From: a bacterium
GTDB taxonomy: Bacteria > CSSED10-310 > JAJRTK01
Direction: 5' to 3'
DNA length: 9,738 nt
Assembly (NCBI GenBank): GCA_024278345.1
Contig: JAJRTK010000517.1
Coordinates: forward strand, 1-9,738
The notes under the pieces were generated by a model. That model worked only from the letters and a program-made list of their open reading frames with translations, did no database searches and was not told the DNA's origin. Shown here one piece after another: positions 1-9,738 of this stretch. Positions within the stretch are counted from its first letter, which is position 1; every line of letters begins with the position of its first letter. A program made the translations under genes and the position numbers.

Positions 1-97
1 GGGAGCTGGCTCCCTGGCGTGGGTCTGGGAGCGGCGCTCCCAGCGGAGGTCCGGAGGCGGAGCCTCCGCCGGGTTCCAGGGCTGGAAGCCCCGGGGC
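1..97. repeat. Hairpin-array repeat, copy 1 (left end of window)
   Basis: Five perfect short hairpins or palindromes follow each other almost without gaps. They are GGGAGC-TG-GCTCCC (1-14), CTGGGAGC-GGC-GCTCCCAG (25-43), CGGAGGC-GGA-GCCTCCG (52-68), TTCCAG-GG-CTGGAA (74-87) and GCCCCGGGGC (88-97). Bases 1-78 recur at 9661-9738 with one difference (G59 versus A9719), which falls in the loop of the third hairpin and leaves the stem intact. A diverged relative lies at 9355-9440 and a more decayed one near 5813-5850. The repetition and pairing are seen directly. Function is unknown: it could be a REP/BIME-like element, a transcript-end structure or a mobile element end. Confidence 0.85.
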
Positions 98-116
98 GGC
101 GTCTGAAATCTGAACC

Positions 117-140
117 GTGGCCGGTACCATGACCGAGGCC
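117..140 (+). repeat. 24-bp inverted repeat (delta block), left copy
   Basis: A 24-base stretch centred on GGTACCATGACCGAGG is identical to the reverse complement of 9600-9623. At the right end it sits next to another repeat block (gamma). Here it lies between the hairpin array and the 3' end of the membrane-protein gene. No function can be assigned; it behaves as one module of the mosaic repeats in this window. Confidence 0.7.
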
Positions 141-153
141 GATTGGCCTTTTT
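136..153 (+). terminator. Possible Rho-independent terminator, + strand
   Basis: AGGCC-GATT-GGCCT is a 5-bp stem with a 4-base loop, directly followed by a short T run, the expected order for transcripts entering from the left on the + strand. It abuts the stop codon of the minus-strand gene ending at 154; read on that strand it lacks a trailing T run, so it would not be a normal terminator for that gene. The short stem makes the call weak. Confidence 0.35.
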
Positions 154-1134
154 CTAGAGTGGGACGCCCAGGTTGGTCGCCACAAGCCAGGCGCCAGCGG
201 CGGCGCTCATGGGGATGACAAAGTTGTCGTCGATCCTTCGGGTCACCAGTTCCGCGATGGCCGCCGGAAGGCTTGCGCCCAGGGCGATGGCCACCATCGC
301 CGGCCATTTTACCTCGGGATGCCAGAGCATCATGACCACCACAGCCGCCAGCCCGCCCACGGCCAGGAAGGTCAGGCTCCCCTCCAGGGATCGACCGTGG
401 ATGAGGCGAATGCGTCCCCAGCGGCGGCCGATGAGGCCGGCTGCCGGGTCGGCAAAACCCAGAATCACCAGGGAAACGGAACAAAGAAGCGTCGATCCGG
501 TGAGCGACAGACAGAGCAACGCCGTAGTGTACCATGTGGCCGAATTGACTCGACGCCATTCGTGAGGATGTGCTACAGGGCCGTAAAGCCGCATGAGCCG
601 CTCGTTGAACTGAGGGCTATGGCGGCGCGCAATCTCCATGCTCCAAGCGTAGACCGCGAAACCTCCAGCGACGGCGATCAGCCCAACCGGTGTGAGAACG
701 AGCTCCACCAAGGTCAGAGCGAAGAGGGCCGAGCCCACGTGCAATATGTTCCGAGCATAGTTTGTCGGCCGAAGGCTAGGTACGTGAATGTCGAATCTTT
801 GCAGGCTCAGAGCCAGAGAGTTGTAGGAAGCCTGCAGGTTCTGCCGAAACGCTTTCCACTCTTGCCGTACGTCGTAGGTCGGTAACTCCATGGCCGGCAT
901 GCCTTCTCGGAGCAGCCGTGCAAGCTCGCCAAGTTGCTCCCGCACCGTGGCTCCCAATTCTTCGGGCCAACTCAGGTGCAGAAGGTAAGAGAGGCGTTCT
1001 TCGATCTCGGCCAGGCGTTGTCGAAAAACAACTTCCAGGTCGTCTTGCCAACGGGAAGGATCGAGTTCGCCGAGGAGCGTGTACAGGTCGAGAGCCAGGT
1101 CGCGGCTATCGAGGGTCAATACGTGGGAGGACAT
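154..1134 (-). CDS. Polyprenol/diacylglycerol kinase-like (Sec59/DGK1 family) membrane protein
   Basis: The 326-residue protein probably phosphorylates a polyprenol or diacylglycerol lipid in the membrane; related enzymes use CTP. The C-terminal ~200 residues carry the family signature: FADPAAGLIGRRWG at 227-240, matching the usual G-D-P-x-A...G...G pattern, then GRSLEGSL at 247-254. About six hydrophobic segments lie between ~130 and 323. The start at 1134 is chosen because GGAG precedes it by 8 nt; the reading frame stays open upstream to 1449, but the in-frame ATG at 1206 has no Shine-Dalgarno. Residues 1-125 are helical and charged, probably a cytoplasmic extension, and are not typical of the family. 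The exact lipid substrate and nucleotide donor cannot be read from sequence. Downstream lie only repeats. Confidence 0.75.
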   Translation of the reverse strand: MSSHVLTLDSRDLALDLYTLLGELDPSRWQDDLEVVFRQRLAEIEERLSYLLHLSWPEELGATVREQLGELARLLREGMPAMELPTYDVRQEWKAFRQNLQASYNSLALSLQRFDIHVPSLRPTNYARNILHVGSALFALTLVELVLTPVGLIAVAGGFAVYAWSMEIARRHSPQFNERLMRLYGPVAHPHEWRRVNSATWYTTALLCLSLTGSTLLCSVSLVILGFADPAAGLIGRRWGRIRLIHGRSLEGSLTFLAVGGLAAVVVMMLWHPEVKWPAMVAIALGASLPAAIAELVTRRIDDNFVIPMSAAAGAWLVATNLGVPL

Positions 1135-1296
1135 GGAGTGGACTCCAGAGTCTGGAAGAGGCGTCGGGCGTATGGTCGGAAGGCACGATTCTTCCAATGG
1201 AAGCATGGAGCCAGGGAGGGAAGCTATCCCCGCTAGACCACCACCTCTAGAAAACAACGGCCAAAGTATAGCAGTTGAGAAAAGGAAGATCGAATC

Positions 1297-2100
1297 AGGT
1301 GCGAGCACTGCTCCACGGGCGAACGGGACGCCATCAAGGTCGTGCGCCTTGTCAAGGCAGGGCTCCTGCAAAGCATCCGCCGCGAGATCCTCTCTCTCTC
1401 CCGACTCCAGCATCCGGGCATCGTGCGAATCTTGGACGATCGGCCCCACTGGCCTGCCCGTCTTGTTCGACTTTGGGCTTGTTGCACGGTTCGCTGGGCA
1501 GGTGAGCCGCGATGCCCTCGAAGCGGGTGCGGTTCAAGGCGGGTCCATGGCGTACATGGCACCGGAGCAGATTCGCGGAGAAGTGGTTGATGCAAGGGCC
1601 GACCTGTACGCCCTTGGGTGCATACTGTTCGAGCTGCTCACCGGTAGAAGGCCGTTTAACGCCAGCAGCCTTGGCGCAATGGCTTCAGCCCATCTCAACG
1701 AAAAGCCTCAAGCCCCCTCGTTAGTTGTCTCGGGCTTGCCCGAGGGGCTGGAGGCCATCTGGACAGAGCGGGCGATCTTTTGGCGGCGGGTGTGCGGATT
1801 CTGGACGAGATCGGAGCTGAGTTCGAGCTGGCGCGGATCCTTTGCCAACAGGGCCATCTGAACCTGGCCCGCGGGCGGAACGCTGGCGATCTGCTCAGGC
1901 GGGTCCAGGAGTTTTCCGCAGGACTCGGCGTTCCGCCCATGGGCGAGCTAAGCCAAGCGATATCCAGACTCCGGCGGGCACAGGACACTTTCGCGACCGG
2001 CGAGCATTCCAGCCTGTTTCGGGGCCATCACGTGGAAGAGATTCATCAAGGGCTTCCGCGCTGGCTCACCAACGGTGATCTGCTTCCTTCTGCCCGGTGA
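1297..2100 (+). pseudogene. Decayed Ser/Thr protein kinase, possibly with a C-terminal TPR-like region
   Basis: Three fragments of a Hanks-type kinase lie in order but in different frames. Fragment 1 (1297-1440) reads STGERDAIKVVRL, with the ATP-binding Lys at 1336-1338, then the alpha-C region IRREILSLSRLQHPGIVRIL. Fragment 2 (1451-1756, another frame) resumes at LPVLFDFGLVARF (DFG at 1469), then MAYMAPEQIRG (APE) and DLYALGCILFELLTGRRPF. Fragment 3 (1759-2100, frame changed again) reads LLAAGVRILDEIGAEFELAR, LGHL-type helical repeats and RLRRAQDTF, resembling the C-terminal helical tail of large multi-domain kinases. The glycine loop and the whole catalytic loop (HRD) are missing, so no active kinase can be made. 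The losses are deletions rather than point mutations. The kinase identity is firm; the TPR origin of fragment 3 is inference. Confidence 0.8.
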
Positions 2101-2392
2101 CGACCTCCCTGCCGCCAGAGGCCAGCCGGAAGCCGATGGGAAGTTCGAGCATGCTCTTCGCTGGGGGCGTGGTTTTTGGCGCTTACCCATGGCAGTCTTC
2201 CGAGCCACGACTTTGCTTTTTTCGGCCTCCTTTTCTAAGTTGAAAGCTCGTATCTATCTTCCGGCGGCGTGGTGGCCGGCCTTTCCTTGCTCTGGCCTCT
2301 GCACCCACCGATCGGCAGCCTCGGCGAAGTTCCGGTCTTCTGGCAGCGAGCTGCCGCGGCCTCCACAAGCCGCCGATTGAGAGCTGCTACAT
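2101..2392. other. Intergenic stretch without recognisable gene
   Basis: About 290 bases between the kinase debris and the zinc-finger gene. Short open frames exist on both strands, but none shows a recognisable motif, a convincing ribosome binding site or protein-like composition. It may be further kinase-locus debris and should hold the promoter of the gene at 2404; I could not identify a clear -35/-10 pair. Confidence 0.5.
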
Positions 2393-2403
2393 AGGAGGCG
2401 AGT

Positions 2404-2829
2404 GTGGACGAAATTGTCACGACGCTGATCCGCTGCTCGTTTTGCGGAAAGAACCGCAGAGAAGCCCTCCAGATCTTTGCTAGCGACACCGCTCGGATTT
2501 GCGACCAGTGCGTTGTGCGTTTCTACAGCCAGTTGCCTGGTCCGTTTCCCCTGGCCATGCCACCCTCACCCGCGGTGGCCGGGCTCAAAGGGAAGGTTGT
2601 CGATCTCTTTGACCCGGCGGCGGATCCGGAAACCTCCACACCCCAGCCAGATCGTGGCCGGTTGGCTGTCGATCCCGCCACCTACGAGGCGCGTTCCCGG
2701 GCCGCCCTCATCTTGACCGAGGCTGATGGAGAGGCACAAGAGATCCTGAGGCAGGCCAGGGATGCCTATCGCTACATCATTGAAGAGGCCCGCCAAAAGG
2801 TGGATAAGGCCAAGGGCACCGATCCTTGA
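2404..2829 (+). CDS. Stand-alone ClpX-type C4 zinc-finger protein
   Basis: The 141-residue protein starts at GTG, 5 nt after a strong AGGAGG (2393-2398). Residues 11-36 form a C4 zinc finger: C11-x2-C14-x18-C33-x2-C36, in the context RCSFCGKNRREA...RICDQCV, the same spacing as the N-terminal ClpX finger that dimerises and binds adaptors and substrates. ClpX has an AAA+ ATPase domain after the finger; here there is only a proline-rich linker (about 45-85) and a charged alpha-helical segment (about 90-138, DPATYEARSRAALILTEADG then AQEILRQARDAYRY). No Walker motifs are present. The protein could act as an adaptor or decoy for a protease or as a nucleic-acid or protein docking factor; that is inference. 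It ends 20 bp from the convergent methyltransferase gene. Confidence 0.8.
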   Translation: MDEIVTTLIRCSFCGKNRREALQIFASDTARICDQCVVRFYSQLPGPFPLAMPPSPAVAGLKGKVVDLFDPAADPETSTPQPDRGRLAVDPATYEARSRAALILTEADGEAQEILRQARDAYRYIIEEARQKVDKAKGTDP

Positions 2830-2849
2830 AATTCGAGCTTGCTCGGGGC

Positions 2850-3473
2850 CTATTCGGCGACTTTCAGCGCCAGCACCTGGACGACGGCGCTGGGGCCGGT
2901 GTGGCACCGGCCTTCGAGGATTCTTCGTTCCAGCTCGGCCCCGTGGGCGAACTGGAGGCCGGCCAGCTCTTGGCGGAGTTCGCGGAGCCCAAACAGGAGC
3001 TCGGGGTTCTTGGGGCCGCCGGTGCCGAACTGAAGCTGCGCTGGCGTGTAGGCTTCCAGGACCAGCGCTCCTCCGGGCCGGAGCCCCAGCACGATCTTTT
3101 CGTGGAGCCGTTTTCGCGAGGCCAGTGGCAGGTGACACCAGATCTCGGTCACCAGGTCATAGCTCAGGGGGGGGATCTCCAGTTCCGTGAGGTCTGCCTT
3201 CGTGGTTTGGATTGTGGTTCCCATCTCGGCCGCCAGGTGGCGGGCTTTTTCCAGGCCCACACTGGAGAGGTCCACCGCTTCGACGTCAAACCCTTGGGTG
3301 GCCAGCCAGACGGCATTTCGCCCTTCGCCAGCCCCCAGGCAAAGGGCTTTGCCCCTTTGGAGGCGCCCTGCGACGGACGCCAGAAACTCGTTCGGCTTCT
3401 TTCCATAGGCGTAGCCGGTTTCGCTGAACCGCTGGTCCCACATATTCTGTTTTGGGTTTGGGGATTGGGTCAT
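2850..3473 (-). CDS. Class I SAM-dependent methyltransferase (TehB/TPMT-like)
   Basis: The 207-residue protein has the Rossmann methyltransferase fold. Motif I is LCLGAGEGRNAVWLA at 44-58, the ribose-binding acidic strand is VEAVDLS at 64-70, and later come DLVTEIWCHLP (about 105-115) and LRPGGALVLEAYTPAQL. The N-terminus MWDQRFSETGYAYGKKPNEF is characteristic of the small TehB/thiopurine-methyltransferase-like group, in which SAM-dependent methylation detoxifies small nucleophiles or metalloids. The substrate here is unknown. The start at 3473 is supported by AAGGA 8-9 nt upstream. It is transcribed divergently from the B3/B4 gene (119 bp between starts) and converges with the zinc-finger gene. 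Length is normal and all motifs are present, so it looks functional. Confidence 0.85.
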   Translation of the reverse strand: MTQSPNPKQNMWDQRFSETGYAYGKKPNEFLASVAGRLQRGKALCLGAGEGRNAVWLATQGFDVEAVDLSSVGLEKARHLAAEMGTTIQTTKADLTELEIPPLSYDLVTEIWCHLPLASRKRLHEKIVLGLRPGGALVLEAYTPAQLQFGTGGPKNPELLFGLRELRQELAGLQFAHGAELERRILEGRCHTGPSAVVQVLALKVAE

Positions 3474-3592
3474 GAAGGGTTCCTTTCTTCAGTGGATGCC
3501 TCTAGCTGGAAACCCGAGTATGGCAAGGTGGTTGCCTTTTGGTAGACTCGCGAAATCGTGGCACGGGCTATTCGCGCGGAGGTTGCCAAGAG

Positions 3593-4255
3593 ATGAAGGT
3601 CGTTTTGGAAAAGTCGGTTCTGGGGAAGCTATGCTTGGGGGTGATCGTTCTGGAGGGAGTAGAGGCGGGGGATGCGCCCCGCGAGCTCGATGAAGAGATG
3701 AGACGGCTTGCAGAGCAAATGGGCGCGAAGTTTCAGGGTCTAAAACCCTCGGAGATCCCAGGCCTTTCCGTGGCGCGGCGCCTCTATCGGGCCATGGGAA
3801 TGGATCCCACCCGTGTGAGGCCGTCGTCGGAAGCCTTGCTGCGGCGGTCTATCAAAGGGCGGCCCCTGTACCGGGTCAATTCCGTGGTGGACGCGGGGAA
3901 TCTCTTTTCGTTGGAATCACTTTTGCCTATCGGCCTGTACGACGCCGAAAAGATCCATGGAGATGTTCTGGTACGCCTTGGCACCGAAGCCGACGGTTAC
4001 GAAGGGATCAGAAAAGGGCGGATCGGACTCCGAGGGCGAATTGGCCTTTTCGACGATGAAGGCCCTTTTGGCAACCCCAGCGCCGACTCGCTCAGAACCT
4101 CTATCGGTCCTGACACCCGGTCGATCCTGCTGGTGATCTTCGTTCCCGCCGGATACGGCAAAGCTTCGCTGGATCGTGCGGTGACCAGGGCCGCGGAACT
4201 CCAGGTGCGATACAACGGCGGCCAGATCGTCCAGCAAGAAATCGTCGCCTCCTGA
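3593..4255 (+). CDS. Stand-alone B3/B4 (PheT-like tRNA-binding/editing) domain protein
   Basis: The 220-residue protein contains the B3/B4 domain found in the beta subunit of phenylalanyl-tRNA synthetase, where it edits mischarged tRNA. Key stretch: RPSSEALLRRSIKGRPLYRV (76-95), then NSVVDAGNLFSLESLLPIGL (96-115) and FDDEGPFGNPSADS (153-166). Stand-alone proteins of this kind are widespread and largely uncharacterised; a tRNA proofreading or other amino-acid-related role is inferred from the domain only. The frame is open back to 3539, but ATG 3593 is preferred because GGAGG (3578-3582) lies 10 nt before it. It has no companion synthetase gene here. It converges with the lipoprotein gene, whose stop is 33 bp away; no clear terminator is visible between them. 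Confidence 0.82.
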   Translation: MKVVLEKSVLGKLCLGVIVLEGVEAGDAPRELDEEMRRLAEQMGAKFQGLKPSEIPGLSVARRLYRAMGMDPTRVRPSSEALLRRSIKGRPLYRVNSVVDAGNLFSLESLLPIGLYDAEKIHGDVLVRLGTEADGYEGIRKGRIGLRGRIGLFDDEGPFGNPSADSLRTSIGPDTRSILLVIFVPAGYGKASLDRAVTRAAELQVRYNGGQIVQQEIVAS

Positions 4256-4288
4256 ACGCTGGCACCGTCAGCTTCGGGGGCGCGGCAA

Positions 4289-4825
4289 TCAGCGACGATA
4301 GCGCGGCAGAATCCGTACGCGGAGGCTGTCTTCGGCCCATGCACGCCGCGGTCGGGAATCGTGGATCGGCCGGATGTCACGCTCCATCATCTCCTGCTCC
4401 GAACCGCGATAGCGGTAGAAATTCCCCGCCTTCCGGTAGTTGGGGGACAAGTCGTGCCTGGCCAGAGTGGCGAAAATCTTCACGATCTCGGTTCCCGCTG
4501 GCGGCGCGGCTTCGAGCTTGTAGGAGGCCCGTTTGGGAGGCACGCGATAGGATCGACCGCCTCGGACGAAGTTCTCCTCGTGCCACCGGTTGGGGAAGAG
4601 GATGGTCACCTCACCGCTAGTGCCGATGTCTACAAGAGTTACGTAGCAATCATGGTTCGCTCGGAATTCGAAGGTGATGGGCTCACCGATGTTGTACGTG
4701 GCGTCGGCACGCGTCGTCCAGAGTTCGATGCGGAGCTCCGGGCCTGGCCGGGTAGCCTTCGAACCGGCACAGCCAGCGAACAGCAGAGCCACGACAAGAA
4801 GGGCGGGGAAGCGAGACTGCGGCAT
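4289..4825 (-). CDS. DUF4384-type lipoprotein
   Basis: The 178-residue protein begins MPQSRFPALLVVALLFAGC, a signal peptide with lipobox LFAGC, so Cys19 should be lipidated and the protein membrane-anchored on the outer face. The body matches DUF4384: YNIGEPITFEFRANHDCYVT (44-63), then LVDIGTSGEVTILFPN (64-79), VRGGRSYRVPP and PAGTEIVKIFAT (109-120). In other proteins DUF4384 often follows a kinase or caspase-like domain or occurs alone in lipoproteins; the function is unknown. The start at 4825 is chosen because AAGGAG lies 6 nt upstream; the in-frame ATG at 4861 would add 12 residues ahead of the signal peptide. The C-terminus is very basic (RVRILPRYRR). Upstream begins the long gene-poor repeat region. 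Confidence 0.85.
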   Translation of the reverse strand: MPQSRFPALLVVALLFAGCAGSKATRPGPELRIELWTTRADATYNIGEPITFEFRANHDCYVTLVDIGTSGEVTILFPNRWHEENFVRGGRSYRVPPKRASYKLEAAPPAGTEIVKIFATLARHDLSPNYRKAGNFYRYRGSEQEMMERDIRPIHDSRPRRAWAEDSLRVRILPRYRR

Positions 4826-5027
4826 GATCTTCTCCTTTTTGTCAGGTTTCACCTTCACCACCTATACCATTCTTTGGCCGTGGAGAAGAGGGTATCGACC
4901 TTCAAAGACGACGTTTTTCCGAGGACGGAATCTTTCACGCACCAAGACCGAAGTCTGACGCGCATCGTACGACTCTCCCAATCGGAATCAGGCTCACACT
5001 TGGTTGCCGGTCGTGGGAAAACGACAG

Positions 5028-5119
5028 GAGATAATTCCTGAAAATCGCTTTCTTTTCTTATGGTTGAGGTCCGCTCCCGGCGGCGGCAGTCCGTCCGCCG
5101 CCACTCGCCCATCACCGCC
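5028..5119 (-). repeat. REP-like element (zeta family), copy A
   Basis: An element of about 90 bp whose core on the minus strand is CGGCGGACGGACTGCCGCCG (5081-5100), a perfect 6-bp stem with an 8-base loop. The core is flanked by GGGCGAGTGG on the 5' side and an A-rich tail CTCAACCATAAGAAAAGAAA on the 3' side. Full-length alignment by eye with copy B (5888-5975, opposite strand) gives roughly 80% identity. Copies A and B are inverted and flank the intron relic. The core is conserved in all four copies in this window. No function is known from sequence. Confidence 0.8.
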
Positions 5120-5181
5120 CCCGGGGGCACCTGTCAAAATGCCGTGTTTTTGCTTTACAATTATCTTCGCCGCCCTGGTGG

Positions 5182-5200
5182 CACCGGCATCTTGCCGGTG
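5182..5200. repeat. Isolated REP-type palindrome
   Basis: CACCGGCATCTTGCCGGTG is a perfect 8-bp stem with a TCT loop. Palindromes built around a GGCA-TCT-TGCC centre are, to my knowledge, common as dispersed intergenic repeats in several bacterial phyla. Only one copy is in this window, and it differs from the other repeat families here. It lies just upstream of the intron relic. Confidence 0.6.
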
Positions 5201-5309
5201 GCGTGCCGGACGGGATTCACGCACTTGAACGGTGGGTTCCTGTAGGGCGTGAACTTGTCAACCGGATCTGATAGGTTCCCCCCTGCGGTTCCCGCTCATT
5301 GCCCGGAAA

Positions 5310-5625
5310 CGTCAAGAGGCCTTGCGCCGAGTCGATAACTTGCTCAAGGATGGATTCAGCTAGGTGGTGGATCGACTTGAAAGGATATTTCGACACGATT
5401 CCACACAAGGAGCTCATGGACGAGGTAAGGAAAGATCTCAGTCCCCTCGATCACGCCATGGCGGGAGCGGGATTCGAGATGGTTAGGTACGCCGACGACT
5501 TTGTCATTCTTTGCCGTAGTCAGGAAGCCGCGGAAAACCATCAACGCTGGCCAAATGCCTGCTTTACCGAGCTTGGGTTCTTTTCCTTGGAAGTAGCCCA
5601 TGCCTCGGCCTGCCAGTCTCGATGA
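5310..5625 (+). pseudogene. Group II intron reverse transcriptase/maturase, internally deleted remnant
   Basis: The first segment reads RQEALRRVDNLLKDGFS (5310-5360), typical of the region just before the first catalytic aspartate. A stop and a +1 shift follow near 5361, then DLKGYFDTIPHKELMDEVRK in the new frame (RT motif with the first Asp). The sequence then jumps from RKDLS straight to PLDHAMAGAGFEMVRYADDF, so the middle palm motifs (the usual GTPQGG...SP block) are missing. YADD (5488-5499), the active-site motif, is intact and followed by VILCRSQEAAE. The thumb/maturase domain X is absent and the frame closes at 5625. It is a dead copy. It reads on the same strand as, and just before, an intron domain V, as expected for an ORF in domain IV. 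Confidence 0.88.
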
Positions 5626-5643
5626 GAGACCCTACCGACTGGA

Positions 5644-5724
5644 GAGCCGTATGCGGGAGAACCGCGCGTGCGGTTCGGAGGGAGGGGAGGCGCAAACCAA
5701 GGCGCTTTCCCTAGCCCTATCCAC
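5644..5724 (+). ncRNA. Group II intron domains V and VI (3' end of intron relic)
   Basis: Bases 5644-5676 read GAGCCGTATGCGGGAGAACC and then GCGCGTGCGGTTC, the 33-nt domain V hairpin of bacterial group II introns, with a GAGA-type loop and the AGC triad near its 5' side. Domain VI follows: GGGGAGGCGC (about 5685-5694) can pair over 10 positions, including G-U pairs, with GCGCTTTCCC (5703-5712). The C/T-rich tail CCTAGCCCTATCCAC then resembles an intron 3' end, placing the boundary near 5724; that boundary is inferred. Domain V is far better preserved than the protein gene before it. Confidence 0.75.
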
Positions 5725-5748
5725 ATTTTTGTGCGCTGCGCGTTTTTT
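5721..5748 (+). repeat. Gamma repeat block, copy 1
   Basis: CCACATTTTTGTGCGCTGCG, followed by CG and a T run, recurs on the minus strand at 9626-9656 and 9317-9348. It has a small GCGC-TGC-GCGC-type hairpin ahead of T6. In this copy the block begins exactly where the group II intron appears to end, so it may be the intron's 3' flanking DNA or may overlap the intron end. Confidence 0.7.
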
Positions 5749-5762
5749 GGGGAGGGTGGTCG

Positions 5763-5800
5763 GGTCCGAGCGACGGCGAGAGCTGCCGAAGGCACCACCG
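5763..5800 (+). repeat. Beta repeat block, copy 1
   Basis: About 38 bases with core GCGAGAGCTGCCGAAGG and end CACCACCG, matching the minus strand at 9528-9566 with a handful of differences. Both copies are closed by an outer inverted repeat (GGTGGT/ACCACC here, CGGTGG/CCACCG there), so the block can fold. It lies downstream of gamma in both places. Confidence 0.65.
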
Positions 5801-5812
5801 ATGACCACCCCC

Positions 5813-5850
5813 GGTGCAGGGAAAAGCCCTGCCTAGGGCCGGATGCCGGG
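5813..5850 (+). repeat. Hairpin-array repeat, decayed copy
   Basis: GGTGCAGGGAAAAGCCCTGC followed by CTAGGGCCGGATGCCGGG corresponds to hairpins 2 and 3 of the array at 9405-9440. Hairpin 2 still pairs (GCAGGG/CCCTGC), while hairpin 3 keeps the GGA loop but has lost most of its stem. Hairpin 1 is not recognisable. Confidence 0.6.
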
Positions 5851-5887
5851 TCGAAAGACGCTTTGGGGGAAGTGAGACCGGTTGAAG

Positions 5888-5975
5888 GGCGATGATAGGG
5901 GAGGGGCGGCGGACGGATTGCCGCCGACCCGACCGGAACTCAACCAAAAGAAACGAAAGCAGTTTTCTGGATTTG
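5888..5975 (+). repeat. REP-like element (zeta family), copy B
   Basis: The core CGGCGGACGGATTGCCGCCG (5907-5926) pairs perfectly over 6 bp with an 8-base loop. It is followed by CTCAACCAAAAGAAACGAAA, the same A-rich tail as in copy A. It is inverted relative to copy A and lies on the other side of the intron relic, with the two cores about 800 bp apart. Confidence 0.8.
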
Positions 5976-6005
5976 TGCCCTAAAGGCGTCCCACTACCAA
6001 ATATT

Positions 6006-6026
6006 CCGCCTTACGTGGGTACCCTC
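6006..6026 (+). repeat. Alpha repeat block, copy 1
   Basis: The 21-base stretch with core TTACGTGGGTACCCTC matches 9505-9525 at 19 of 21 positions, on the same strand. It lies just downstream of the radical SAM stop codon (6043, minus strand). GGGTACCC within it is palindromic in this copy. Confidence 0.6.
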
Positions 6027-6042
6027 ATGACCCAGCTTGGGC

Positions 6043-7209
6043 TTATGCCAGGCAGCTAGCCTCCTGGCTCTGGTTGAAGGCGCTGAACCTGGCCAGCCAG
6101 GAGTTGAGTTCCCTGGCCCGTTCATCGGGTTCGCCATCGTGCTCTTCGTCTTGCCAGCCGATATAGATCTGCCCTCCCAGTTCTGATTGATCCAGGATCT
6201 CCCGGATGCGTAGGAGCGCTTCCACCGCCTGCGGTAGCCTGGCTCGCGGGTGGTGAGGGAAATGGCGGCGACCTACCTGGCTCCGGTAGTAGGGATGGAA
6301 GTTCAGGTCCAGGGCCAAACTCCATTTTTCGCTGACTTCCAGGGCGTAGCGGGCGGTTGCCACCGCTTCCCGGACAGCGGTTTTCGGAGTGGTGCCCGGC
6401 GGCTGGAAGAGGATGTTGACATCGAGTCCCAGGTTGCGTCCTCCGCTTTGGAGCATCGCCGCAGCCCGCTCGAATCCACGGCGGCTCATGGGCTTTTTCA
6501 GGATTTTTGTGCGGAGGTCGTCGTCCTGGGTTTCCAAGCCGAGGATGACTCGGCCTTTTTGGTTGGCGGGAAGATGCTCCAGAAGGCATTCCAGAGCTCC
6601 GTCCGTGACGTAAATTTCGCGGGAATCGATGGATACAGTTTGGCAAAGGGCGAGGGATGTGGCGAAATCCAGGAGTCGCCCCAATGTTTTGCGGGAGGTT
6701 TCGGCGGGGTTGAAGAGGGAGCCGGAGTTGTACAGGACCAGATGAGCCACCGTAGGCAAGATCCCGTGGTAAATCTTGCGCACCTCGTCTAGGCGGCGCT
6801 CGTTCATCTTTGGCGTAAACTGGATGCCTTCGCCGGCTCCGATATCGCAGTGGTAACAGGAGCGGCCGTAGAAGGGACAGCGACCGTCTCGGTTCTCGTT
6901 GCCGAAGACCAGCGCCAGCCGAACGCCGTAAGTATCGCGGGTGGGAAGAAACCGAACAAATCCCCGGGGAATAGCCGGATCGGGAGCTTCCCCTTCACCT
7001 GGGGAATGCTCTTTGGTAGACCCTTCGCTCCCTCTCTGTTGCGTTCCGCTCGCGTCGGCGGCAATCCGTCCGCCGCCCCTCGCCATTGTCGCCGCACTTG
7101 TCATCCACTGCCCGAGGGTCGGAGTGGGACCTGGGTCCGTGGCGCGAAATTTTGGGTCCGTGGCATGGAGGCGCTCGTTTTCGCGGTGGCTTTTTGCGTT
7201 ACGGGGCAT
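6043..7209 (-). CDS. Elp3/archaeosine-synthase-like radical SAM protein
   Basis: The 388-residue protein binds a [4Fe-4S] cluster through C111-x6-C118-x2-C121 (RCPFYGRSCYHCDIGAGEG) and should cleave SAM to a 5'-deoxyadenosyl radical. Further landmarks are LVLYNSGSLFNPAE (157-170), VSIDSREIYVTD (192-203), VILGLETQDDDLRTKILKKP (221-240) and LDVNILFQPPG (262-272). These resemble the Elp3-type fold and especially the archaeosine-synthase-like (TIGR01210-type) group, enzymes acting on modified tRNA bases; the subgroup is inference. Start 7209 overlaps the carbamoyltransferase stop by 11 bp, suggesting translational coupling; no strong SD is seen. Residues 1-85 lack family homology and are low-complexity: residues ~38-63 are encoded by a REP-like repeat and residues ~15-27 by a 21-bp repeat (ATDP-ATDP). 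No good alternative start exists after the repeat. Confidence 0.82.
   Translation of the reverse strand: MPRNAKSHRENERLHATDPKFRATDPGPTPTLGQWMTSAATMARGGGRIAADASGTQQRGSEGSTKEHSPGEGEAPDPAIPRGFVRFLPTRDTYGVRLALVFGNENRDGRCPFYGRSCYHCDIGAGEGIQFTPKMNERRLDEVRKIYHGILPTVAHLVLYNSGSLFNPAETSRKTLGRLLDFATSLALCQTVSIDSREIYVTDGALECLLEHLPANQKGRVILGLETQDDDLRTKILKKPMSRRGFERAAAMLQSGGRNLGLDVNILFQPPGTTPKTAVREAVATARYALEVSEKWSLALDLNFHPYYRSQVGRRHFPHHPRARLPQAVEALLRIREILDQSELGGQIYIGWQDEEHDGEPDERARELNSWLARFSAFNQSQEASCLA
7022..7095 (-). repeat. REP-like element (zeta family), copy C, inside the radical SAM coding frame
   Basis: The minus-strand core CGGCGGACGGATTGCCGCCG (7056-7075) is identical to copy B. Similarity extends outwards on both sides (GGCGAGGGG before; GACGCGAGCGGAACGCAAC after, versus GACCCGACCGGAACTCAAC in copy B). 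It stays in frame within the radical SAM ORF and encodes GGGRIAADASG. Confidence 0.8.
7132..7164. repeat. Short 12-bp direct repeat, 21 bp apart
   Basis: TGGGTCCGTGGC occurs at 7132-7143 and again at 7153-7164. The 21-bp period is a multiple of three, so it encodes a repeated ATDP in the N-terminal extension of the radical SAM protein. This adds to the impression that the extension derives from intergenic DNA. Confidence 0.6.
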
Positions 7210-8908
7210 CGGGCTTTTTCTTGACCAGGGTGTGGCCCAGGACCAGGCAGTCGATGCCGGTCCGTAGAAATGTTTTGACGGCGTCGGCCGGGGTGCAGAC
7301 GATGGGTTCCCGGTCGTTGAACGACGTGTTGAGAAGGATCGGCACGCCGGTCAGACCGTAGAATTCGGAGAGCAACCGATGAAACCTCGGATTGGTCTTG
7401 GCCCGTACTGTCTGGACCCTGGCCGTACCATCCAGGTGAGTGACTGCCGGGATCTTCTTGGCCTGGCCTTCGAGGACTTTGTACGCCAGGAGCATGAAAT
7501 CCGAAGAGACCGAGTTGCCCGGGATCCGGAACCAGTCCCGTGCGTGCTCGGAAAGGACCGATGGAGCAAAGGGGCGAAACTCTTCCCGGTGCTTAATCTT
7601 CCGGTTGAGGATCTCCTTCATCCCCGGGTTTCGGGGGTCCGCCAGAAGGGAACGGTTGCCCAGCGCCCTTGGTCCCAGCTCCATTCGGCCCTGGAACCAC
7701 CCCACGATGGCGCCGCGGGCCAACAACTGCGCCGTCCGGACTTCGATTTCTGGACAGACCTCGAAGCGCAGGCCGTGGCGGATGAGGCATTGGTGGATTT
7801 CGGATTCCCCAAAGGCCGGCCCCAGATAGGGGTGCTCAAGAAACCAGTTCTTTGGCCTCCCAAGGATTTGCCGCCAGAGAAGAAGTGCCGCACCCATGGC
7901 CGTCCCCGCGTCATTGGCCGCCGGTTGTATGTAGATCCTGTGGAAGGGACTCTTTTCCTGGAGGACCGCGTTGGCCACGCAGTTCAGAGCGACGCCTCCG
8001 GCAAGGCAGAGGTTTCGGCTCCCGGTCCGCTGCCAGAGCCGCTCTGCAAGGCCCAGCAAGACTTCTTCCGTCAATTCCTGGAGAGAGGCGGCGATGTCGC
8101 CGTGCCTGGGGTCAAGCTCTGCGCCAGGTTGCCGCCGCGGCCCCAGGAGTGCCTCCAGGGCTCCATAATCCGGTGTACGGAAACGAACAATTTCTGGCGC
8201 CACAAAAAACAACCCGTCCTCCTCAAGACGAACAAATTGGCGGAACGCTCCTCGGAATTTTGCCGGTTTTCCCAGCGCAGCCAGTCCCATGACCTTGGCT
8301 GCGTCGTACTCCGTGAATCCCAAAAAGAGCGTGACCTTCTCCCACAAGAAGCCCAGAGAATCGGGATAGAGAAGCTCTTCCAGCTTACGGATGCGGTTTC
8401 CTTGGCCATGAAACAGACCTGTCGTGGCGATCTCGCCGATCCCGTCAGCCGTCAAAATGGCTGCTTCGTCGAACGGAGAGGGGAAGAAGGCGCTGGCGGC
8501 GTGACAAAGATGGTGGTCCAGCCAGTGGAAGCCTTTTTTCAGGGAGCGCCCAGCCAGCTTGTCCAGCAGCAGGGGAACTTGCCGCAGCTTTTCCTGAAAC
8601 AGCCGCTCTCCCGCCATGCTTCCCCAGTCTCCCTCGACGCCGCCGCCCGCGTCGATATTTTTCAGCCGGAGCGGAGGATTGAAGGAGTAGCCCACGGCCT
8701 CCACGTCGCAAAGCCGAGCGCCAGCCTCGCGGAGGGCCGCACTCAAAGACTTTTCTGGCAGGCTATCGGGATTGTCCACGCGGGCGGGCTTCCCGTGCTT
8801 GATGCGGCTGAAACGCTCCTCCTCCGCGGCGAAGCGGACGACCCCATCCTCCAAAAGACAGACCGCCGATTCGTGATAAGCCGAGTTCAGTCCCAAGATC
8901 AGGCCCAT
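7199..8908 (-). CDS. Carbamoyltransferase, NodU/CmcH/TobZ family
   Basis: The 569-residue protein has the full family length. Such enzymes make carbamoyl-adenylate from carbamoyl phosphate and ATP in a Kae1-like domain, then pass the carbamoyl group to a hydroxyl of a sugar, nodulation factor or antibiotic. Start MGLILGLNSAYHESAV has the conserved His12. LDHHLCHAASAFF holds the metal-binding HxxxH (H132, H136), and QPAANDAGTAMGAA holds the third ligand (D333). LAGGVALNCVAN (302-313), GRMELGPRALGNRSLLADPR (407-426), KIKHREEFRPFAPS (437-450) and LLNTSFNDREPIVCTP (525-540) are all present. Start 8908 is set by AGGAGG 8 nt upstream; an open frame extends to 9148 but only through a repeat. The stop overlaps the downstream radical SAM start by 11 bp, so the two form an operon. 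The acceptor substrate is unknown; no sugar or polyketide genes lie nearby. Confidence 0.93.
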   Translation of the reverse strand: MGLILGLNSAYHESAVCLLEDGVVRFAAEEERFSRIKHGKPARVDNPDSLPEKSLSAALREAGARLCDVEAVGYSFNPPLRLKNIDAGGGVEGDWGSMAGERLFQEKLRQVPLLLDKLAGRSLKKGFHWLDHHLCHAASAFFPSPFDEAAILTADGIGEIATTGLFHGQGNRIRKLEELLYPDSLGFLWEKVTLFLGFTEYDAAKVMGLAALGKPAKFRGAFRQFVRLEEDGLFFVAPEIVRFRTPDYGALEALLGPRRQPGAELDPRHGDIAASLQELTEEVLLGLAERLWQRTGSRNLCLAGGVALNCVANAVLQEKSPFHRIYIQPAANDAGTAMGAALLLWRQILGRPKNWFLEHPYLGPAFGESEIHQCLIRHGLRFEVCPEIEVRTAQLLARGAIVGWFQGRMELGPRALGNRSLLADPRNPGMKEILNRKIKHREEFRPFAPSVLSEHARDWFRIPGNSVSSDFMLLAYKVLEGQAKKIPAVTHLDGTARVQTVRAKTNPRFHRLLSEFYGLTGVPILLNTSFNDREPIVCTPADAVKTFLRTGIDCLVLGHTLVKKKPDAP

Positions 8909-9028
8909 GCCGCGCACCTCCTGCCACCTGACCGGAAACCGCCCACCAGCATGAAGGGTTCCTCGACCATCTTGAGGGTCCGGTGGTGAAGAGGCTCTCA
9001 GGGAAATAATCCCGATCCGGGGAGAATC

Positions 9029-9060
9029 ATGGGCGAGTGGCGGCGGACGGATTGCCGCAG
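9029..9060 (+). repeat. REP-like element (zeta family), copy D, truncated
   Basis: ATGGGCGAGTGG followed by the core CGGCGGACGGATTGCCGCAG (9041-9060) has one change in the last stem pairs relative to the perfect copies. The left flank matches copy A. The A-rich tail is absent, so the similarity stops right at the core, where it meets the remnant ORF at 9061-9217. Confidence 0.75.
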
Positions 9061-9217
9061 TGTCGTTTGGAGTGATAGGCTGAGTTTCCCCAAGCCTCCG
9101 GACCACGAACTTTTCGGCCTGCTCGCGCAGAGTGACCTCATTGGCCAAGAGAAGCCCCTGTCAGGGCGCAAGCGCCATTGCGGCTGCCATGACGAACGCT
9201 CCGGTGGTTTCTTTCAT
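9061..9217 (-). pseudogene. Broken start of a small, possibly exported protein
   Basis: ATG 9217 has a strong AGGAGG 6 nt upstream and opens MKETTGAFVMAAAMALAP, then an in-frame TGA (9161-9163). The same frame continues QGLLLANEVTLREQAEKFVV and RRLGETQP before running into REP-like copy D. Skipping the stop, this looks like a signal peptide followed by a helical mature start, loosely like periplasmic proteins such as FlgA; that resemblance is weak. A good SD with a dead frame suggests a real gene lost by a nonsense change and truncation at the repeat. Alternatively it is a tiny 18-residue leader ORF. Confidence 0.4.
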
Positions 9218-9316
9218 GCCCGTCCTCCTAAGTTTGCTCTTTGCCGCCATTTGATGGAATCCATGGGTCTCGTCCTTCGGTGGGTATGCACCTAAGCCGG
9301 GACACACGACAAAACC

Positions 9317-9348
9317 AGAAAAAGAGGCGCAGCGTACAAAAATGTGGG
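9317..9348 (-). repeat. Gamma repeat block, copy 3
   Basis: On the minus strand it reads CCCACATTTTTGTACGCTGC, then GCCTCTTTTTCT, a diverged version of the blocks at 5721-5748 and 9626-9656. As at 9626, it lies immediately left of a hairpin-array copy, so gamma plus array seems to be one composite unit of over 100 bp. Confidence 0.65.
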
Positions 9349-9354
9349 CTGGGA

Positions 9355-9440
9355 TCCCGTTGCCCTTCGTTGCAACGGGAAGATGAGCTAGCTCCCTGGT
9401 GGGTGCGGGGCAAAGCCCTGCCTGGGGACGGAGTCCCCAG
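9355..9440 (+). repeat. Hairpin-array repeat, copy 2 (diverged)
   Basis: Hairpins in order: a 9-bp stem TCCCGTTGC/GCAACGGGA with an 8-base loop (9355-9380), the palindrome GAGCTAGCTC (9385-9394), GCGGGGC-AAA-GCCCTGC (9405-9421, one G-U pair) and CTGGGGAC-GGA-GTCCCCAG (9422-9440). Joining sequence CTCCCTGGTGGGT matches CTCCCTGGCGTGGGT of copies 1 and 3. Compared with those copies, both stem strands have changed together while the GGA loop of the last hairpin is kept. Confidence 0.75.
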
Positions 9441-9504
9441 ACGACCGCCGAGCAGAGCGAGGCGCTGCCCGGACGATTGGCATTACCACAATCCATGAAG
9501 TGTC

Positions 9505-9525
9505 CCGCTTTACGTGGATACCCTC
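9505..9525 (+). repeat. Alpha repeat block, copy 2
   Basis: Core TTACGTGGATACCCTC, matching 6006-6026 at 19 of 21 positions on the same strand. Here it directly abuts the beta block, whereas in the centre of the window about 200 bp of other repeats separate them. Confidence 0.6.
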
Positions 9526-9527
9526 CT

Positions 9528-9571
9528 TCGGTGGTGTCTTTGGCAGCTCTCGCTGGCGCTCGGTCCCACCG
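9528..9571 (-). repeat. Beta repeat block, copy 2
   Basis: The minus strand reads GACCGAGCGCCAGCGAGAGC and then TGCCAAAGACACCACCGA, matching 5763-5800. The ends CGGTGG (9529-9534) and CCACCG (9566-9571) are complementary and can close a long stem-loop. Confidence 0.65.
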
Positions 9572-9599
9572 ATGGATGAGGCCGTCGAGGGCAACTGCG

Positions 9600-9623
9600 G
9601 GCCTCGGTCATGGTACCGGCCAC
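9600..9623 (-). repeat. 24-bp inverted repeat (delta block), right copy
   Basis: Exact reverse complement of 117-140 over 24 bases, adjacent to gamma copy 2. In the left part of the window delta follows the hairpin array at a distance of about 20 bp. Confidence 0.7.
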
Positions 9624-9625
9624 CC

Positions 9626-9656
9626 GAAAAAAGCGCGCAGCGCACAAAGATGTGGG
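9626..9656 (-). repeat. Gamma repeat block, copy 2
   Basis: The minus strand reads CCCACATCTTTGTGCGCTGC then GCGCTTTTTTC, closely matching 5721-5748. It lies directly beside the right-end hairpin array, repeating the gamma-array order at 9317-9440. Confidence 0.7.
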
Positions 9657-9660
9657 TCCA

Positions 9661-9738
9661 GGGAGCTGGCTCCCTGGCGTGGGTCTGGGAGCGGCGCTCC
9701 CAGCGGAGGTCCGGAGGCAGAGCCTCCGCCGGGTTCCA
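9661..9738. repeat. Hairpin-array repeat, copy 3 (right end of window)
   Basis: Matches 1-78 at 77 of 78 positions, including hairpins at 9661-9674, 9685-9703 and 9712-9728. The single difference (A9719 for G59) is in the GGA loop. The window stops inside the fourth hairpin. The interval therefore starts and ends in the same repeat, in the same orientation. Confidence 0.9.

What the first reader, a model, noticed from the sequence alone, without database searches (positions are those of the whole stretch)
1..9738. Hairpin-array repeat with covarying stems
Copies at 1-97, 9355-9440 and 9661-9738, with a decayed one at 5813-5850, share joining sequence and loop sequences but not stem sequences. 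For the third hairpin CGGAGGC/GCCTCCG (52-68) corresponds to CTGGGGAC/GTCCCCAG (9422-9440) around the same GGA loop. For the second, CTGGGAGC/GCTCCCAG corresponds to GCGGGGC/GCCCTGC. The only change between copies 1 and 3 is in a loop. Both strands of the stems changing together implies selection on a folded RNA or DNA structure. I know of no named family with this serial layout, but I could not search.
Basis: partly seen in the sequence, partly recalled or inferred. Interest (0 to 1): 0.75.

Follow-up and report, generated by a model that had tools for sequence, protein, structure and literature searches.

The report
Jumping DNA carrying hairpin arrays
The repeated hairpin clusters are the insides of tiny parasitic DNA elements (MITEs) that have copied themselves hundreds of times around this bacterium's genome, and their hairpins are partly kept paired by matching changes on both arms.

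Summary
The repeats are real, but they are not a free-standing structured RNA. They are the interiors of short non-autonomous transposons (MITEs). Copies "1-97" and "9661-9738" are cut ends of one 201-bp element (family A). It has 24-bp perfect terminal inverted repeats (TIRs) and 8-bp target duplications (11 of 18 both-ended copies), with 216 TIR ends genome-wide. The 9355-9440 copy is the core of a second family (B, window 9282-9523) with a different 24-bp TIR, TSD TCCTTCGGT on both sides, and 445 TIR ends. A and B share a leader with an intrinsic terminator on one strand, and a first hairpin. After that come interchangeable hairpin cassettes. Within family B, the last hairpin shows true two-sided changes at 4 of 8 pairs and the one before it at 0 of 7. 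In young family A, stems carry about 3.4-fold fewer private changes than loops and linkers. No transposase with these TIRs was found. None of seven same-phylum genomes carries B elements. Group II introns use a fixed spot in the leader as a landing site (6 of 6 junctions). Verdict: a new, unusually modular, GC-rich MITE superfamily; hairpin function unproven.

The parts
1..140 (+). Family A MITE, left part missing (contig starts inside hairpin 1). H1 1-14, H2 25-43, H3 52-68, H4 76-94, right TIR 117-140
   Evidence: Same unit at >=40 places at 98-100% identity; element ends at 140, flanks differ beyond it
117..140 (-). 24-bp right terminal inverted repeat of family A, perfect inverted copy of 9600-9623
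   Evidence: Inverted repeat I8, 100%; 216 ends genome-wide at <=2 mismatches, control pattern 0
9600..9738 (+). Second family A MITE, right part missing (contig ends inside it); left TIR 9600-9623, leader, H1, H2, H3. Different copy from 1-140: flanks 9592-9599 and 141-148 do not match as a TSD
9633..9645 (-). Intrinsic terminator-like hairpin GTGCGCTGCGCGC + TTTTTT in the leader, read from the strand opposite to the array
   Evidence: Terminator scan, 2 overlapping calls against 0.3 expected; same in an intact copy
9282..9523 (+). TIRs 9282-9305 and 9500-9523; alternative first hairpin, H2 9405-9421, H3 9422-9440
   Evidence: TIR pair and flanks; fold z -5.7; covariance model 50.8 bits
9273..9281 (.). 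Left target-site duplication TCCTTCGGT of the B element
   Evidence: Identical to 9524-9532
9524..9532 (.). Right target-site duplication TCCTTCGGT of the B element
5815..5854 (+).
   Evidence: 20.8 bits, E 0.004 with the B model; 87% to 9402-9432
5299..5720 (+). Group II intron remnant (reverse transcriptase fragment 5299-5625, domain V region 5642-5720) joined to the MITE leader
   Evidence: RVT_1, RF00029 45.1 bits; same 3' junction in 6 of 6 copies
5721..5748 (-). Leader/terminator segment of an A/E-type MITE that the intron sits in
   Evidence: 93% inverted match to 9628-9655; alignment with other leaders

Best explanation
The arrays are the internal region of a superfamily of miniature inverted-repeat transposable elements. 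A DDE transposase acting in trans recognises the 24-bp ends, moves the element, and leaves 8-9 bp target duplications (target duplications shown; transposase inferred, not found). Behind the ends lie a leader, whose opposite strand holds an intrinsic terminator, and a modular run of short GC-rich hairpins with 2-3 nt loops. Hairpin cassettes are exchanged between families with different ends through recombination in the shared leader and first hairpin (cassette combinations and one A/B chimera shown; route inferred). Hairpins stay paired partly through two-arm changes. My most likely reading is that the folded hairpins plus terminator make the inserts tolerable, by ending or insulating transcription where they land between genes, with palindrome-templated correction contributing to the matching arms (both inferred). 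The confidence below is for the MITE identity; for the insulation role alone I would say about 0.35.
For: Perfect 24-bp TIRs, 216 ends for A and 445 for B, control pattern 0 in both. 8-bp target duplications: A 11/18 perfect; B 32 of 54 at >=7/8, against 0.8% or less in random controls. An A copy splits an ISL3 transposase gene, with GTTCAAGC(G) repeated on both sides. Lengths cluster at 201 bp for A. No element-borne transposase gene in 1.41 Mb read. Insertions avoid ORFs: 20/34 with a spanning ORF against 769/837 random positions. Modularity: B ends with direct (24) or alternative (34) first hairpin before the same B array; the A-type array sits behind A, D and E ends; L168 1398-1627 has an A end on the left and a B end on the right, without a TSD. 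Covariation in B hairpin 3. Stem depletion of private changes in family A, 7/4082 against 25/4259, p 0.002. Terminator.
Against: No transposase carrying these ends was found. Searches of the own genome for IS256, ISL3, DDE_Tnp_1, IS1595 and ISKra4 families gave nothing or fragments without matching ends. The genome is 88% complete and broken at repeats, and only about 23% was scanned for long TIR pairs. Seven A and 22 B both-ended copies lack a recognisable TSD. Functional effect of hairpins is untested; no expression data. The private-change comparison rests on 32 changes, and contig ends inside repeats can bias it.
Confidence: 0.85

Rival explanations
1. A structured non-coding RNA family: the hairpin array is transcribed and selected as RNA, with the transposon ends incidental.
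For: Strong folding, two-sided changes in B hairpin 3, fewer private changes in stems.
Against: No Rfam family matches. No G.U bias clearly favouring one strand. Arrays are found inside TIR-bounded mobile elements or their wrecks, and cassettes are freely swapped or lost. Hairpin 2 of B shows no two-sided change.
Confidence: 0.1
2. The elements are MITEs, but there is no selection on structure: palindromes arise and are kept perfect by template switching between the two arms during replication, so arms match without function.
For: Cassettes include nested and lengthened palindromes, such as the L244 11664 H1 slot GGTAGGGTCACGGCATGCCGTGACCCTACC. Two-arm changes sit next to loops and at stem ends.
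Against: Loops and linkers stay recognisable within families while whole cassettes keep their order. Single-arm mismatches persist in many copies (24 copies with A.C in H4 of family A, 14 haplotypes with G.T in B hairpin 2), so correction is not rapid.
Confidence: 0.35
3. REP/BIME elements spread by a RAYT (Y1) transposase.
For: Short palindromes with conserved loops, extragenic bias.
Against: Long TIRs and 8-bp target duplications are not REP features. Only one sub-threshold Y1 match in the genome (21.5 bits, cut-off 23).
Confidence: 0.03
4. GC-rich hairpins aligned by chance, or a circular-contig overlap at the two window ends.
For: The window ends carry nearly the same 78 bp.
Against: The unit lies at dozens of other places with unrelated flanks. 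The flanks of the two window copies do not form a TSD.
Confidence: 0.01

Closest known systems
BOX elements of Streptococcus pneumoniae (PMC3049150)
   Same: Modular MITE-like repeats with TIRs and TSDs, variable internal modules, predicted stem-loops, nested insertions, over a hundred copies
   Different: BOX repeats one boxB module in tandem; here different hairpin cassettes are combined, in a GC-rich genome, behind at least two verified sets of ends. No sequence match was tested
Chunjie MITE of Geobacter uraniireducens and QMITE2 of Coxiella (reviewed in PMC10969869)
   Same: About 200-bp elements, 23-29-bp TIRs and 7-9-bp repeats in QMITE2, strong folding, many partial copies
   Different: The passages read do not describe serial interchangeable hairpins with two-arm changes; no sequence comparison was made here
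SPRITE (terminator-like repeat of S. pneumoniae, PMC3049150)
   Same: A repeat carrying an intrinsic-terminator-like hairpin
   Different: Much simpler; AAAA/TTTT ends
Group IIC intron target hairpins (PMC3898094)
   Same: Group II intron remnants here sit at one fixed spot next to MITE hairpins, as expected for introns that recognise DNA hairpins
   Different: Intron class was not determined here

Membership tests
MITE | Short element bounded by terminal inverted repeats | tested here: met
   24-bp TIRs, 201 bp (A), mostly 168-336 bp (B)
MITE | Target-site duplication on insertion | tested here: met
   11/18 A perfect, 32/54 B at >=7/8; controls <=0.8%
MITE | Many dispersed copies, mostly outside genes | tested here: met
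   661 TIR ends; spanning ORF 20/34 against 769/837 at random positions, so biased away from ORFs
MITE | No transposase of its own | tested here: met
   No TIR pair 700-5000 bp apart with a TSD in 1.41 Mb; elements of about 170-340 bp
MITE | Mobilised in trans by an autonomous element with the same ends | tested here: inconclusive
   Five transposase families searched, none with matching ends; assembly incomplete
REP/BIME | Short palindromes without TIR/TSD, associated with a RAYT (Y1) transposase | tested here: not met
   TIR and TSD present; Y1 only sub-threshold
BOX-type modular MITE | Interchangeable internal modules behind fixed ends | tested here: met
   Cassette table
BOX-type modular MITE | Sequence homology with boxA/B/C | not tested
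   No BOX sequence was fetched; membership is not claimed
Known Rfam RNA family | Covariance model match above gathering score | tested here: not met
   Only Intron_gpII in the window; nothing on the elements in five more contigs

The most novel reading that the evidence does not exclude
The hairpin cassettes are selected modules: the MITE superfamily survives by swapping structurally equivalent, sequence-divergent hairpins between families with different ends, each hairpin being recognised by shape (host termination or nuclease machinery, or the transposition complex itself), which makes the genome a natural library of covarying DNA/RNA hairpins.
Probability: 0.15. Interest if true: 0.7.

Novelty: new variant of a known kind. 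Interest (0 to 1): 0.42.

Why it matters
Bacterial MITEs are usually described as simple, typically AT-rich elements (PMC10969869). Here a GC-rich genome of a sparsely sampled phylum carries hundreds of modular ones, built from exchangeable hairpins with partly covarying stems. That gives a natural experiment on whether palindrome arms match because of selection or because of template switching, a question the copy numbers here make answerable. The elements also probably explain why this genome falls into 550 contigs, and they serve as a repeated landing site for group II introns.

Tried and rejected
Circular-contig overlap as the cause of the matching window ends: rejected on flanks. Stand-alone RNA: no Rfam match. 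Autonomous partner: long TIR pairs, atypical TIR interiors, repeated ORFs and five transposase families gave no element with these ends. The ISL3 and IS1595 genes seem to have other ends; the ISL3 gene is itself split by an A element. ISKra4 remained my guess from recalled TIR/TSD type only. Presence elsewhere: none of 59 other genomes, seven of them same-phylum, by BLAST; none of those seven by covariance model. Exact-pattern scans of viral contigs: none. No near match among plasmids. Cross-family stem comparison as proof of covariation: rejected after the register control.

Full report
What is there. The window is a whole contig (G000:C463, 9738 bp) of a 6.06-Mb draft genome in 550 contigs, 87.9% complete. 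Lining up the loci shows one element of 201 bp with unrelated flanks: GGCCTCGGTCATGGTACCGGCCAC at the left, the same sequence inverted at the right, and the hairpins between. In the window the left end is at 9600-9623 and the right end at 117-140, from two different copies, since 9592-9599 and 141-148 do not match.

Transposition. Genome-wide there are 216 family A ends (<=2 mismatches; reversed control 0). The 9355-9440 array lies inside a different element, 9282-9523, with ends GGGTATGCACCTAAGCCGGGACAC and GGGTATCCACGTAAAGCGGGACAC and TCCTTCGGT repeated on both sides. That family has 445 ends. In 1.41 Mb of fetched contigs, 11 of 18 both-ended A copies have a perfect 8-bp duplication. An A copy splits an ISL3 transposase gene with GTTCAAGC(G) on both sides. 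Insertions lie outside ORFs more often than random positions (20/34 with a spanning ORF of >=150 aa against 769/837, p 4e-7; in GC-rich DNA such ORFs include spurious ones). These are the defining features of MITEs.

Anatomy. After the ends comes an A-rich stretch and the leader GCGCAGCGYACAAARATGTGGG. Its opposite strand holds a short stem followed by TTTTTT, an intrinsic-terminator-like site. Then come hairpins with 2-3 nt loops. In family A these are CCAGGGAGC-TG-GCTCCCTGG, CTGGGAGC-GGC-GCTCCCAG, CGGAGGC-GGA-GCCTCCG and CCAGGGCT-GGA-AGCCCYGG. In family B they are the same first hairpin or an alternative one (CCCGTTGC...GCAACGGG), then GCAGGGC-RAA-GCCCTGC and CCGGGGAC-GGA-GTCCCCGG. Family B ends occur with the direct (24) or alternative (34) first hairpin. 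The A-type array also occurs behind two further end types, D and E, identified by sequence only. One element (L168 1398-1627) has an A left end and a B right end without a TSD, a chimera. Intact elements fold far better than shuffles, A z -7.3 and B z -5.7.

Do the stems covary? Three levels need separating. Between A and B, two-sided differences are unavoidable when two perfect hairpins are laid on each other: all nine pairings tried gave 2-5 such pairs and none broken. The combined count (9 pairs, 73 cells) therefore says little unless homology is known. A covariance model from B hairpins 2-3 finds window 51-95, that is A hairpins 3-4, at 21 bits (best A copy 25 bits, E 5e-4), against a background hit at 17.5 bits. 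Within B, homology is certain: hairpin 3 has 4 pairs with two-sided changes in 17 cells (shuffled 5.4 +/- 1.7; slid controls at most 3), hairpin 2 none. The haplotypes are related, so these are few events. Within young family A (67 copies), stems carry 7 private changes in 4082 cells against 25 in 4259 for loops and linkers (p 0.002), or 9/70 against 24/83 sites (p 0.018; changes shared by three or more copies left out of the first count). Contig ends inside repeats may bias this. One-sided changes give no consistent G.T excess over A.C that would point to RNA.

Mechanism. Shown: terminal repeats, duplications, copy number, intergenic bias, modular cassettes, terminator-like site, partial covariation. 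Inferred: movement by a DDE transposase in trans; cassette exchange by recombination in the shared leader and first hairpin; tolerance of inserts through hairpins and terminator; part of the arm matching through template switching. I could not find the transposase: fragments of ISKra4-, ISL3-, DDE_Tnp_1- and IS1595-type genes exist but none has these ends, and IS256 is absent. ISKra4 remains my guess from recalled TIR/TSD habits only.

Relation to known things. By TIR, TSD and copy number they are MITEs. The nearest parallel in design is the BOX element, with variable modules between ends, TIRs, TSDs and stem-loops (PMC3049150). Size, TIR length and 7-9-bp repeats resemble QMITE2, and the spread of partial copies resembles Chunjie (PMC10969869). 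They are not REP/BIME: long TIRs, 8-bp TSDs, and only a sub-threshold Y1 match. No Rfam family matches. None of seven same-phylum genomes has the B array by covariance model, while the own genome gave 150 matches, the number scored.

A side finding supports hairpins being visible to other mobile DNA. A group II intron remnant (5299-5720) ends exactly in the leader, and all six such 3' junctions found lie at the same leader position in different elements. Group IIC introns are known to use DNA hairpins as targets (PMC3898094), although the class was not determined here.

Noticed in passing
window 5299-5720; L104, L106, L138, L161, L162: Group II intron remnants whose 3' junction (...CCCTAT/CCACATT) falls at the same leader position of the MITEs in 6 of 6 copies, suggesting the MITE hairpins are the intron's landing site.
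   Followed up: partly
window 5083-5109, 5898-5924, 7058-7084, 9032-9058: A third, shorter repeat (GGCGAGTGGCGGCGGACGGATTGCCGCCGCCGGGAGCGGAACGCAACC), about 70 places in 1.41 Mb; REP-like, some stems changed on both arms (GTCGGC/GCCGAC for GGCGGC/GCCGCC).
   Followed up: partly
L215 335-535 (G000:C5): A complete family A element splitting an ISL3 transposase gene, with GTTCAAGC(G) on both sides.
   Followed up: yes
L168 1398-1627: Chimeric element with a family A left end and a family B right end and no target duplication.
   Followed up: partly
L154 about 13900-14074: Tandem GACGCGCAGCGTC AAAAAAA units: the leader terminator hairpin amplified in tandem.
   Followed up: no
L134 126-798; L094; L215 845-1240: B-type elements with a roughly 250-bp insert (GTCCAGCAACTGTCTTGAATGTCAA...) in the first hairpin slot, seen in three places (cut by the contig end in L094), identity unknown; no Rfam match in L134.
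   Followed up: partly
L142 4075-4318: A 244-bp B element plus an 8-bp duplication (252 bp, a multiple of 3) inside a long open frame that begins with a protein-kinase-like sequence, so possibly inserted in frame.
   Followed up: no
window 1079-2100: Protein-kinase-like frame (Pkinase match) that looks degraded, near the first MITE.
   Followed up: no
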